A stretch of DNA of 51,083 nucleotides from an uncultured Bacilli bacterium (GTDB taxonomy: Bacteria; Bacillota_I; Bacilli_A; RF39; UBA660), in the NCBI GenBank assembly GCA_947624175.1, contig CANQJD010000003.1:1-51083 (forward strand). Reading direction: 5' to 3'. This document shows positions 18,544 through 22,288 of this stretch, one piece after another (the stretch's first letter is position 1; every line of letters begins with the position of its first letter). The position numbers and the translations under genes are program-made. The notes below the pieces were generated by a model, which was given only the letters and a program-made list of their open reading frames with translations, was not told the origin of the DNA and did no database searches.

Positions 18544-19473
18544 TCAATCTAAATTCCTTAAATCATAATAATTCTTTGGAAATCCCATTCTATCTAATAC
18601 TTTATCAACACTAATTGTATGCAAGTTTAAACTTAAATTTTCTACATTATGTCTTATTTCTTCCATTAAATTAGCAAATTCTTCTTTTGATAACATCTGT
18701 TTCATAATAATAATTAAAGCAAATGAATCTTCTTTACCATAGATATATTCATCATCCATAATTGGAATATTTAATAATTTATGATACTTATTATCATCTA
18801 TTCTTCTTTGAGTTTTATTCTCAAAAACAATATCTTCATGAGCACATAAATTACGATAATTAGAAAGAATTGTTAAATAATTAGTTAATACATCAACATC
18901 AAGTTTATATATATCAGCAATTCCCATTTGGTCTTCTTTCTTTAATATCGAATATAACTCTCCAACTATTCCAAATGATAATACTTTAACTAATACCCAC
19001 AGTGGAATATATCCATAGTTATTAACATAATGCATTGTAGCCGAATGCTGGGTAGCATTAACATTAATCTGTCTTTTCATTTTTCTTAATATATCATTAA
19101 CTTGTTTTGTTTTTTCTTTATTAGTAGTAAAGTTTTTAGGAGTTAAATAATCTTTTTCTCGATAACCATATTTTAATGATAATTGATAACTAATAATTGA
19201 TTTAATATTATTTTCAATTACTAATATATTTTTAAATAATATATTTCTAAATGTTCTATCAAATAAAAATAAACTATATAATTCTTCAAAAGTAGTTCCT
19301 TCAATATATCTTTTATCAACACTACTTCTCATGAACAAATGTCTATATCCATTTAAAAAGAAATAGTTTTCACGCATTAATACTTCTTCAGTATATTCAG
19401 GATTATTAATAACTAAACCCTTACTTTTTAATATATCTATTTGTTCAACTAATGTCTTAAACTCCTTTTTCAT
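18544..19473 (-). CDS. Abi family (Abi_2/AbiD-AbiF type) abortive infection protein
   Basis: The 309-residue protein has the Abi_2 layout: an N-terminal YFFLNGYRHLF region, the central FLFDRTFRNILF-(x)n-IENNIKS segment, and R207-N-L-C-A-H212 in SNYRNLCAHED, the R-x4-H motif of HEPN-type RNases. Family members stop phage growth by killing or arresting the infected cell, probably through RNA cleavage. Its stop overlaps the HtrA ribosome site, so both may be read from one message. It lies next to the DGR-like cassette but is separated from it by a terminator at 19562-19582. No partner antitoxin is evident. Confidence 0.85.
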   Translation of the reverse strand: MKKEFKTLVEQIDILKSKGLVINNPEYTEEVLMRENYFFLNGYRHLFMRSSVDKRYIEGTTFEELYSLFLFDRTFRNILFKNILVIENNIKSIISYQLSLKYGYREKDYLTPKNFTTNKEKTKQVNDILRKMKRQINVNATQHSATMHYVNNYGYIPLWVLVKVLSFGIVGELYSILKKEDQMGIADIYKLDVDVLTNYLTILSNYRNLCAHEDIVFENKTQRRIDDNKYHKLLNIPIMDDEYIYGKEDSFALIIIMKQMLSKEEFANLMEEIRHNVENLSLNLHTISVDKVLDRMGFPKNYYDLRNLD

Positions 19474-19561: not shown

Positions 19562-19582
19562 AAAAGAAAAAGACTAATTAAT
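19562..19582 (-). terminator. Terminator after the Avd-like gene
   Basis: On the minus strand GACTA-TTAAT-TAGTC is followed by TTTTTCTTTTT. It closes the MSL-Avd pair directly after the Avd-like stop, leaving no room for a downstream reverse transcriptase gene in that operon. Confidence 0.65.
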
Positions 19583-19883
19583 AGTCATAATGTAATCTAT
19601 TACATAATTTAATAGATTGTCTTTCACTTATTATCCTTTTCTTAAAACTTTGTTCTATATAAAAGTCAATTAAATTAACTTTCATAAGAGTTTTAATTTG
19701 AATATCTTTTCTTTTATCTATATTAGTATAATTAGCAATATAAACTAGTTCTAATAATTCATAACTATCATTAACTAATCTATTCCTAAGTTCAAAATAT
19801 TTTCTTGGATAATTAATTAAATAATCATCAAGTATCATAATAAATTCTTTAATATATTTAGCAATAGTAAACTTATCATTCAT
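19578..19883 (-). CDS. Avd-like four-helix protein (DGR accessory variability determinant)
   Basis: The 101-residue, wholly helical basic protein resembles Avd, the pentameric partner of diversity-generating retroelement (DGR) reverse transcriptases. The strongest likeness is NYPRKYFELRNRLVNDSYE then LLELVYIAN (about residues 24-52), which matches the Avd pattern of a Pro-Arg-Lys turn, a long amphipathic helix and an (I/V)xAN end. It starts inside the last codons of the MSL-like gene (shared ATGAATGA), so the two are coupled. Avd normally sits beside a reverse transcriptase, but none is seen here. Related four-helix 23S rRNA intervening-sequence proteins are the main alternative. Confidence 0.65.
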   Translation of the reverse strand: MNDKFTIAKYIKEFIMILDDYLINYPRKYFELRNRLVNDSYELLELVYIANYTNIDKRKDIQIKTLMKVNLIDFYIEQSFKKRIISERQSIKLCNRLHYDY

Positions 19884-20235
19884 TTACAATACTAGATATA
19901 GTTTCTAGTATTCTATCTAATTTTTCAGGACTTATTTTTTTAACCTTTTCAACTAAATCTTTATAATTAGTATCTTTTTCATATTTTTCTTTTCCTAATC
20001 TTACAAATTTTAAATATTTATTTAAGTTCTTAAAGTTATTATTGTTATCTTCTCCTATAACTTCATAACTAATCTTATTTTCTTCTAATTTGTTTATTAC
20101 TTTATTAAGGGCTGATTTAGGAAACCCTACTTTATTATTTATAATTTGATAGTTAAGAAGATAATAAAGAATATAAGAATCATCGTCATAAGTACTATAA
20201 AAAGTACCGCTTCTTCTTATCTTAATAACATTCAT
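19876..20235 (-). CDS. MutS-domain-I-like small protein (DGR MSL-type accessory)
   Basis: The 119-residue protein opens with a stretch resembling the N-terminal mismatch-recognition domain of MutS: RRSGTFYSTYDDDSY near residues 7-21 (compare GDFYExxxxDA), then VGFPKSALNKVINKLEENK and a strand YEVIGE. The rest is a lysine-rich helix. Small MutS-like (MSL) genes are known companions of some diversity-generating retroelements. The gene is directly downstream of the variable surface protein gene and translationally coupled to the Avd-like gene. The upstream ribosome site is weak. It is far too short to be a repair MutS. Confidence comes mainly from the combination with its neighbours. Confidence 0.55.
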   Translation of the reverse strand: MNVIKIRRSGTFYSTYDDDSYILYYLLNYQIINNKVGFPKSALNKVINKLEENKISYEVIGEDNNNNFKNLNKYLKFVRLGKEKYEKDTNYKDLVEKVKKISPEKLDRILETISSIVNE

Positions 20236-20333
20236 ATAACTATAAAACTATACCTTTCTTTATTATTTATATAGTTAAACTTTTAATCAAAACCTATTTC
20301 TACTAATGCTTAATTCCCTTGATATATAAGCCT

Positions 20334-20363
20334 GTTTCCGGACGTCCTTGCCGTCCAGGAAAC
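20334..20363 (-). other. GC-rich hairpin directly after the variable-protein gene
   Basis: GTTTCCGGACG (20334-20344) pairs with CGTCC-a-GGAAAC (20352-20363), an 11-base-pair stem with one bulged A and a TCCTTGC loop. On the coding (minus) strand it starts one base after the stop codon and has no T tract, so it is not an intrinsic terminator. Hairpin/cruciform elements downstream of the variable repeat are required for efficient DGR retrohoming in the Bordetella phage system. Confidence 0.6.
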
Positions 20364-20364
20364 T

Positions 20365-22011
20365 CTATGCCATTTCCGGGTAATATGGAGTTGTCTCAGT
20401 TCCTTCTCCTTGTGTTATTTTTATCTCGGATATTAGATTAACAGACGGACGAACGCCGAGGTTGCCGCCCACGTTGCTACGGTGCACACTACCAGTCGTA
20501 TTCAAGTTAGCAACATAAATAGAACTGGTAGAGGAGGGAGACAACAAACATCCTCCATTACTTGGCATACTATTCATCCAACTTGATGATTTTATTGTAC
20601 TAAAATCTTTTAATTGGGTTTCCCAATTACTACTTTCCGTACTAAATCCATAATCACTTGGATACATTAAGGCTACTTTTCCTTCCCATATTGCTTTATT
20701 TCCTGCCCATACTCGACAATTTGGTGTTTCTGAAAAAGTTAAATCACTTCCTGTATTAGTTGATGGTCCATTCCCATCAGCACACTCACTTACTGCTCTT
20801 TCATTTGCATAGGCTTCCTTTGGTGTATCAAGTACCATACTAGATGAAGTTAATGATGTTACTGTTCCCAAATAATATTTTGTTTCTTCTATCATACTTA
20901 AAGTATCACCTTTTAAGTAACTTAAATATCCTTTATTTGCTTCTCCTTCGGTTTCATCTTCTTTTGTATTTAACCAATATTGTAATCCCGCAGTTGCCCA
21001 ATCATTATTATCTGTTCCACTTACTTTATTATTCCAATAAGCAGTAGTATCCATACTTTTTATATTATAAGTTGTGCCTTCTACTTCATATGTTTCAGGA
21101 AATATTCCACTTAATCTCTCATTTCTTACGATTTTTAAGTGTTCTTTACCACTTTCATCTTTGAATACTCCGATTATTCTCCATTTTTCACAATTAGAAC
21201 TTGCTGTTTCATATGTTGTTCCTTCACTACAATTAAAATAGATATAATTCTTTATTCCATCATTTCCAGAGTATCGATATTCTCTTACTTCGTCATCTTT
21301 AGAAGTTGTTGGAGTATTATCAGCCTTTACTCCAATTACTCCTCCTGGTTGACCTATTGTATCTTTTACTACATCAGTTCCTATTTCACTTTTTATACTT
21401 TTTTCATTGAAATCTCCAGTTACATTTACCTTGATACTTGCAAAAACATCATTCCATTCATCCATATCATAGTTTGCATCACTTGTATTTCCTATTATTG
21501 TTTTACTTGATATCCACATATATAATCTATAGGTTCTTGTTATTTTAGAGTTAGTTCCTGCTGGTATAGTGTTTACATATATTCCTTTTCCGGCTGCTAA
21601 TCCTGTATAACTTCCTTTTTCTATTAATACTTCTTCTTGGTTTTCATCTTTAACTTCTACTAATTTAAATGCTAATAAGTTATCTTCTATTCTCGTCCCT
21701 CTCGTCTCATGTGGTTCTCCATGTTGGATGTCTATTTCATACCAAATTGGTTTACTATAGGTATTTTTTCCTTCGATTGTAAACTCAAAATAATCATTTG
21801 CTCCTGGTCCTTCACTTGGCATAGCATTTTCAATTGTTAAAGCAGGGGTTTCTTTAAACTTCATGTAGATATCTCCCGTTACTAATATTTGATTATCAGT
21901 TGTTCTTGAATAATTCCATATTGCAAATGTTACTCCTAATACGGCAACTAATATGATTGCACTTATACTGGCTATTATTATACCTTTCTTTTTACTGCTT
22001 TGATTGTTCAT
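20365..22011 (-). CDS. SipW-type surface protein with C-type-lectin-like variable C terminus (putative DGR target)
   Basis: The 548-residue protein starts with KKK and a hydrophobic segment (about 10-31) followed by FAIWNYSRTTDNQILVTGDIYM, the signature of SipW-dependent, TasA/camelysin-like exported proteins. Residues ~40-210 are a beta-rich domain of that kind. Residues ~235-548 have the layout of C-terminal domains common on low-GC Gram-positive surface proteins (YWNNK, YWLNTK, VALMYPSDYGF, SWMNS, CLLSPSS, GVRPSVNL, ITQGEGTE). Residues ~485-526 are encoded by a GC-rich stretch expected of a DGR variable repeat. A CTCCTTC (GAAGGAG) ribosome site precedes the ATG. The protein is probably a displayed ligand-binding protein whose tip is diversified. 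Confidence 0.75.
   Translation of the reverse strand: MNNQSSKKKGIIIASISAIILVAVLGVTFAIWNYSRTTDNQILVTGDIYMKFKETPALTIENAMPSEGPGANDYFEFTIEGKNTYSKPIWYEIDIQHGEPHETRGTRIEDNLLAFKLVEVKDENQEEVLIEKGSYTGLAAGKGIYVNTIPAGTNSKITRTYRLYMWISSKTIIGNTSDANYDMDEWNDVFASIKVNVTGDFNEKSIKSEIGTDVVKDTIGQPGGVIGVKADNTPTTSKDDEVREYRYSGNDGIKNYIYFNCSEGTTYETASSNCEKWRIIGVFKDESGKEHLKIVRNERLSGIFPETYEVEGTTYNIKSMDTTAYWNNKVSGTDNNDWATAGLQYWLNTKEDETEGEANKGYLSYLKGDTLSMIEETKYYLGTVTSLTSSSMVLDTPKEAYANERAVSECADGNGPSTNTGSDLTFSETPNCRVWAGNKAIWEGKVALMYPSDYGFSTESSNWETQLKDFSTIKSSSWMNSMPSNGGCLLSPSSTSSIYVANLNTTGSVHRSNVGGNLGVRPSVNLISEIKITQGEGTETTPYYPEMA
20437..20560 (-). other. Putative DGR variable repeat (VR)
   Basis: This segment codes residues ~485-526 (LLSPSS to GVRPSVNL) of the surface protein. 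By hand count 53 of the 100 bases at 20441-20540 are G or C, far above the rest of the gene. Codons such as CAC, CGT, AGC, AAC, GGC and CTC near its end have free first and second bases with a pyrimidine third base, as adenine-directed mutagenesis of AAY codons would leave. No template repeat is found in the window. Boundaries are approximate. Confidence 0.55.
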
Positions 22012-22192: not shown

Positions 22193-22288
22193 TTAAAGGT
22201 AGTAACCCCCCCCCATAGTTGACAAATCGTTAACTTTTGTGGCAAATTTATCATTTGTATAATTTAAATTCAATTCATAATTTGTCAT
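22193..22288 (-). CDS. Possible 31-residue peptide gene with a nine-G tract
   Basis: This short ORF begins MTNYELNLNYTNDKFATK and ends STMGGGYYL. It has its own promoter about 34 bases upstream, a GGAAGTG ribosome-site-like sequence seven bases before the ATG, and a strong terminator after it. A run of nine Gs (22206-22214) encodes the Gly-Gly-Gly. One base more or fewer would replace the last three residues, so the tract could act as a slippage switch. CCCCATA at the start codon can pair with TATGGGG at the tract, and ATTTGTCA with TGACAAAT next to it, which may hide the start in RNA. Alternatively the locus is a noncoding structured RNA. I do not recognise the peptide. Confidence 0.4.
   Translation of the reverse strand: MTNYELNLNYTNDKFATKVNDLSTMGGGYYL

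What the first reader, a model, noticed from the sequence alone, without database searches (positions are those of the whole stretch)
19578..22011. DGR-like target and accessory cassette without a reverse transcriptase
Seen: a SipW-type surface protein gene with a GC-rich lectin-like 3' segment, a GC-rich hairpin, then two coupled small genes resembling MutS-like (MSL) and Avd proteins, closed by a terminator. Known: diversity-generating retroelements pair a variable repeat in a C-type-lectin-fold target with Avd/MSL/HRDC accessories, a template repeat and a reverse transcriptase. Here the last two are absent from the whole window. Inference: either a remote locus supplies them in trans, or the cassette is an orphan kept for another reason. 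A split DGR with accessory genes parked at the target rather than beside the RT would be unusual.
Basis: partly seen in the sequence, partly recalled or inferred. Interest (0 to 1): 0.9.

Follow-up and report, generated by a model that had tools for sequence, protein, structure and literature searches.

The report
Broken protein-diversifying cassette missing its engine
A gut bacterium (class Bacilli) carries a damaged copy of a protein-diversifying retroelement whose reverse transcriptase and template were cut out by one small deletion, while an intact copy with its own template sits elsewhere in the same genome; it is a clear fossil of a known kind of system, not a new one.

Summary
On the minus strand, window 19578-22011 encodes a diversity-generating retroelement (DGR) target with a variable repeat (VR, core 20446-20547), a target-site-type hairpin, an MSL gene and an Avd gene, with no RT or template (TR) on the contig. 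The same 1.48-Mb draft genome has a complete DGR on contig C1 (TR-VR mismatches 22/33 at A, 0/69 elsewhere). A same-genus genome (G013) has a complete cassette, with RT and TR, whose MSL and Avd are 97% and 95% identical to the window's. The window cassette is therefore an internal deletion product: after Avd codon ~97 it jumps, through the 9-bp repeat ATAGATTAC, to the last bases of the gene that follows the TR in complete cassettes. The deletion removed the conserved Avd C-terminus, RT and TR. No TR in the assembly matches the window VR at non-adenine sites, so recent diversification in trans is not supported; the VR looks frozen. Its differences from the closest paralogue's VR (C28) still carry the adenine signature (23/30 vs 11/72, p=5e-9). 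Degenerate DGR loci beside an intact one are already described (Thiohalocapsa, PMC10907252).

The parts
20365..22011 (-). DGR target gene, 548 aa: N-terminal signal/transmembrane segment, C-terminal variable domain
   Evidence: 62% aa identity to the target of the complete cassette in G013; one of about 23 paralogues in the genome
20446..20547 (-).
   Evidence: Codon-for-codon alignment with TRs of C1 and G013; window and C28 VRs differ at 23/30 template-A sites and 11/72 other sites
20334..20363 (-). GC-rich hairpin just after the target stop codon, DGR target-site (cruciform) type
   Evidence: -10.9 kcal/mol, z -5; C1 has a different sequence forming the same bulged 11-bp stem at the same place
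19876..20235 (-). MSL (MutS domain I-like) accessory protein, 119 aa
   Evidence: 97% identical to MSL of complete G013 cassette; family passes Pfam MutS_I cut-off in relatives at the same position
19578..19883 (-). Avd accessory protein, truncated: 101 aa against 106-116 in the aligned relatives; lacks the conserved C-terminal INKMLYKW-type motif
   Evidence: Bordetella Avd is among the weak top fold matches
19592..19600 (-). Deletion junction: 9-bp microhomology ATAGATTAC shared by Avd codons ~95-97 and the end of the post-TR gene
   Evidence: homology to G013 stops at 19592; from 19600 on the window equals the end of the C1 cassette
19567..19600 (-). Residual 3' end of the lost post-TR gene with its stop codon and terminator hairpin (GACTATTAATTAGTC, 19572-19586)
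   Evidence: 34-nt identity with the 3' end of the C1 cassette

Best explanation
The window cassette is a degenerate DGR. It was once complete: target with VR, hairpin, MSL, Avd, RT, TR with its RNA tail, then a small post-TR gene. One deletion between two 9-bp copies of ATAGATTAC, in the Avd 3' end and in the post-TR gene's 3' end, removed the Avd C-terminus, RT and TR, leaving target, hairpin, MSL, truncated Avd and the original terminator. Shown: the parts, the intact relatives, the junction, and the adenine signature in the VR. Inferred: the target is now a fixed product of past diversification, and the accessory genes have no local partner and are probably decaying.
For: 1) G013 encodes MSL 97% and Avd 95% identical to the window's, followed by an intact RT and a TR. 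2) The window sequence leaves the G013 Avd at ATAGATTAC and continues as the last 34 nt of the C1 cassette, terminator included. 3) In the related genomes nearly every Avd hit lies next to an RT or RT remnant (exception: one at a contig edge); the window one does not. 4) The Avd C-terminus, with a tryptophan conserved in every other homologue aligned, is lost. 5) The VR differs from C28's VR mainly at template adenines, 23/30 vs 11/72, p=5e-9; at codon positions 1+2 only, 23/29 vs 6/39, p=1e-7. 6) Its non-A differences from known TRs are mostly at third codon positions, i.e. ordinary drift. 7) The only intact DGR-type RT found is on C1: closest solved structure is the Bordetella DGR RT 8ub7, GLGAMTSQ and YMDD motifs, perfect TR-VR adenine rule.
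Against: The MSL and target reading frames are intact, and Avd still has an open frame with an ordinary start. The assembly is about 95% complete, so a matching TR or second RT could be missing from it. No reads or second strain were available, so some cells may carry an intact locus. Substitutions are too few to prove relaxed selection on Avd.
Confidence: 0.85

Rival explanations
1. The window target is an active remote target: the C1 RT, MSL and Avd, with a TR encoded elsewhere (C48 TR2 or an unassembled TR), diversify it in trans.
For: An intact RT, Avd and MSL exist on C1. A second TR sits on C48 without an RT gene. The window VR keeps a strong hairpin. Trans action is inferred in Thiohalocapsa (PMC10907252).
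Against: The window VR mismatches TR1, TR2 and the G013 TR at about 17-21 of 68-72 non-A positions, whereas an active pair such as C1 has 0/69. No other matching TR was found with two searches. Even TR2's own VRs carry 6/73 non-A mismatches, so recent activity from TR2 is not seen either.
Confidence: 0.1
2. The locus was kept as a working accessory module: MSL and Avd from the window serve the C1 RT.
For: Both reading frames are open, and synonymous divergence from G013 exceeds nonsynonymous (MSL dN 0.014 / dS 0.10; Avd 0.026 / 0.11).
Against: C1 has its own full-length MSL and Avd. The window Avd lost a conserved C-terminal motif. The ratio may reflect mostly time before the deletion.
Confidence: 0.05

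Closest known systems
Degenerate DGR loci of Thiohalocapsa PB-PSB1 (PMC10907252)
   Same: Several DGR loci in one genome, some lacking RT or TR beside at least one intact locus
   Different: There, degradation is linked to transposons and several loci still vary in the population; here a microhomology deletion is seen and no matching TR is found
Treponema denticola remote and leftover DGR targets (PMC4891356)
   Same: Target genes left behind after loss of core components, matching a relative's TR type better than the resident TR
   Different: Here two accessory genes also remain, and the deletion endpoints can be named
Bordetella phage BPP-1 DGR
   Same: Adenine-directed TR-to-VR changes, Avd, DGR RT, hairpin after the VR (PMC3240598)
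   Different: Extra MSL gene; TR lies downstream of RT; a further small gene follows the TR

Membership tests
Diversity-generating retroelement (window locus) | DGR-type reverse transcriptase at the locus | tested here: not met
   None on contig C3; the only intact DGR-type RT is on C1
Diversity-generating retroelement (window locus) | Template repeat paired with the VR | tested here: not met
   No matching TR in the assembly
Diversity-generating retroelement (window locus) | VR with adenine-directed variation | tested here: met
   Window against C28 VR: 23/30 template-A vs 11/72 other sites, p=5e-9
Diversity-generating retroelement (window locus) | Hairpin/cruciform just downstream of VR | tested here: met
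Diversity-generating retroelement (C1 locus, same genome) | RT + TR + VR with adenine-only mismatches | tested here: met
   22/33 A, 0/69 non-A, p=2e-14; RT closest to 8ub7
Avd | Sequence family and four-helix bundle | tested here: met
   PHROG 3206 E=6e-8; four-helix model, pLDDT 68, Avd structures 4dwl/8ub8 among the top but weak fold matches; C-terminal motif missing
MSL (MutS domain I-like) | Similarity to MutS domain I | tested here: inconclusive
   Sub-threshold for the window protein, but homologues at the same position in related cassettes pass the Pfam cut-off; AF2 model too poor to use (pLDDT 45)
C-type-lectin-fold DGR target | CLec fold | tested here: inconclusive
   No solved homologue by sequence; weak DUF6273 match of the G013 homologue; no structure predicted

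The most novel reading that the evidence does not exclude
The genome runs a distributed DGR: one RT on C1, TRs on C1 and C48, targets and accessory genes dispersed (window, C28, C38 and others), with RT-less loci serving as trans-diversified targets through a TR missing from this draft.
Probability: 0.1. Interest if true: 0.65.

Novelty: new member of a known kind. Interest (0 to 1): 0.35.

Why it matters
It shows base by base how a DGR dies, leaving a frozen diversified surface protein, in a small-genome gut Bacilli member with about 23 related target paralogues. It also gives a ready natural contrast (intact C1, accessory-only window, template-only C48) for testing whether a DGR reverse transcriptase can serve templates and targets in trans.

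Tried and rejected
The C19 reverse transcriptase was rejected as a DGR RT: group II intron maturase type, TIGR04416 over cut-off. C1 TR1, C48 TR2 and the G013 TR were each rejected as the direct template of the window VR because of too many non-adenine mismatches. A genome-collection scan with Avd gave only three related loci and no second strain of this species; a viral-contig scan gave nothing. The AF2 model of MSL was too poor for a fold search. A first dN/dS of MSL against C1 was out of frame and was redone. Polarising the few Avd changes with several outgroups gave no clear sign of relaxed selection (window branch 4 nonsynonymous and 2 synonymous, G013 branch 2 and 3). Assembly artefact as the cause of the deletion was judged unlikely: 9 bp is too short a repeat to make an assembler collapse the stretch (reasoning, not tested).

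Full report
Observation. The cassette lies on the minus strand in the order target (22011-20365), hairpin (20363-20334), MSL (20235-19876), Avd (19883-19578), terminator. Avd is supported by PHROG 3206 and NCBIfam DivGenRetAVD and by a four-helix model whose weak best fold matches include S23-family proteins and Bordetella Avd. MSL is supported by weak MutS_I similarity and by homologues beside Avd and RT in related genomes that pass the MutS_I cut-off. There is no RT or TR on this contig.

The rest of the genome. The window is contig C3 of a 1.48-Mb, 77-contig, about 95% complete draft. Contig C1 carries a complete DGR: target, hairpin, MSL, Avd, 366-aa RT and TR. The RT has the GLGAMTSQ and YMDD motifs, and its only significant solved relative is the Bordetella DGR RT 8ub7. 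TR and VR differ at 22 of 33 adenines and 0 of 69 other sites. Contig C48 holds another degenerate cassette: target, a weakened hairpin, an RT C-terminal remnant and a TR (TR2), but no MSL or Avd. TR2 differs from the C48 VR at 19/32 A and 6/73 other sites, and from the VR of a remote target on C38 at 21/32 and 6/73.

Origin of the window locus. Homology to the window stops at 19592. There the window reads AATAGATTACATTATGACTATTAATTAGTC; G013 Avd reads AATAGATTACTTAG, and the C1 post-TR gene ends TATAGATTACATTATGACTATTAATTAGTC. The 9-bp ATAGATTAC common to both sides marks the junction. The deletion explains the missing RT and TR, the shortened Avd lacking the conserved INKMLYKW-type end, and the terminator at its odd place.

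State of the VR. The window VR aligns codon for codon with known TRs, but differs from them at 17-21 non-adenine sites, mostly third codon positions. The closest paralogue's VR (C28) shares its framework: GGCGTTCGTCCGTCTG occurs only in these two places. The two VRs differ from each other at 23/30 template-A and 11/72 other positions. Both thus appear to be diversified copies of one TR lineage no longer found in the assembly. Complete cassettes in this clade show 0-1 non-A mismatches (C1 0/69; G013 1/72), so recent retrohoming into the window VR is not supported.

A mosaic history. MSL and Avd synonymous divergence between the two species is about 0.1, while a core gene (FTHFS) shows 0.52 and the target 0.62. 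Nucleotide identity rises from about 60-80% in much of the target to 91-99% from the hairpin on. The genes flanking the two cassettes also differ. I infer that the hairpin-MSL-Avd-RT-TR module was exchanged between lineages before the deletion; this was not tested further.

Known or new. DGR loci lacking key machinery beside an intact locus are described in Thiohalocapsa, with some trans activity inferred (PMC10907252), and leftover targets in Treponema denticola (PMC4891356). The hairpin after the VR matches the known target-site requirement, where the stem's shape rather than its sequence counts (PMC3240598). This is therefore a new member of a known kind.

Noticed in passing
L119:5907-6158 (-) and L002:2668-2934 (+), with homologues in about ten other cassettes: A small conserved gene (about 83-119 aa) directly downstream of the TR in many complete cassettes of this clade; no Pfam, NCBIfam or PHROG match. 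Possible further DGR accessory gene; its 3' end is what remains in the window.
   Followed up: partly
L002 about 2550-2670; L041 about 10390-10270 (-); L119 about 6280-6150 (-): About 120 nt after the TR are strongly conserved among C1, C48 and G013, possibly the 3' part of the template RNA.
   Followed up: no
G000, many contigs (L007-L036): About 23 paralogous target-like genes in a 1.5-Mb genome, several at contig ends; some with recognisable VRs, others degenerate.
   Followed up: partly
G000:C48:8969-12005 (L041): A second degenerate DGR: target, TR and RT remnant but no MSL, Avd or full RT, the complement of what the window retains.
   Followed up: yes
window 22206-22214: A run of nine C (nine G on the coding strand) about 200 bp upstream of the target, inside a possible 31-aa ORF; the only such run of 7 or more in the window and a candidate phase-variable tract.
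   Followed up: no
window 18544-19473: An AbiD/Abi_2-type abortive infection gene directly beside the cassette.
   Followed up: no
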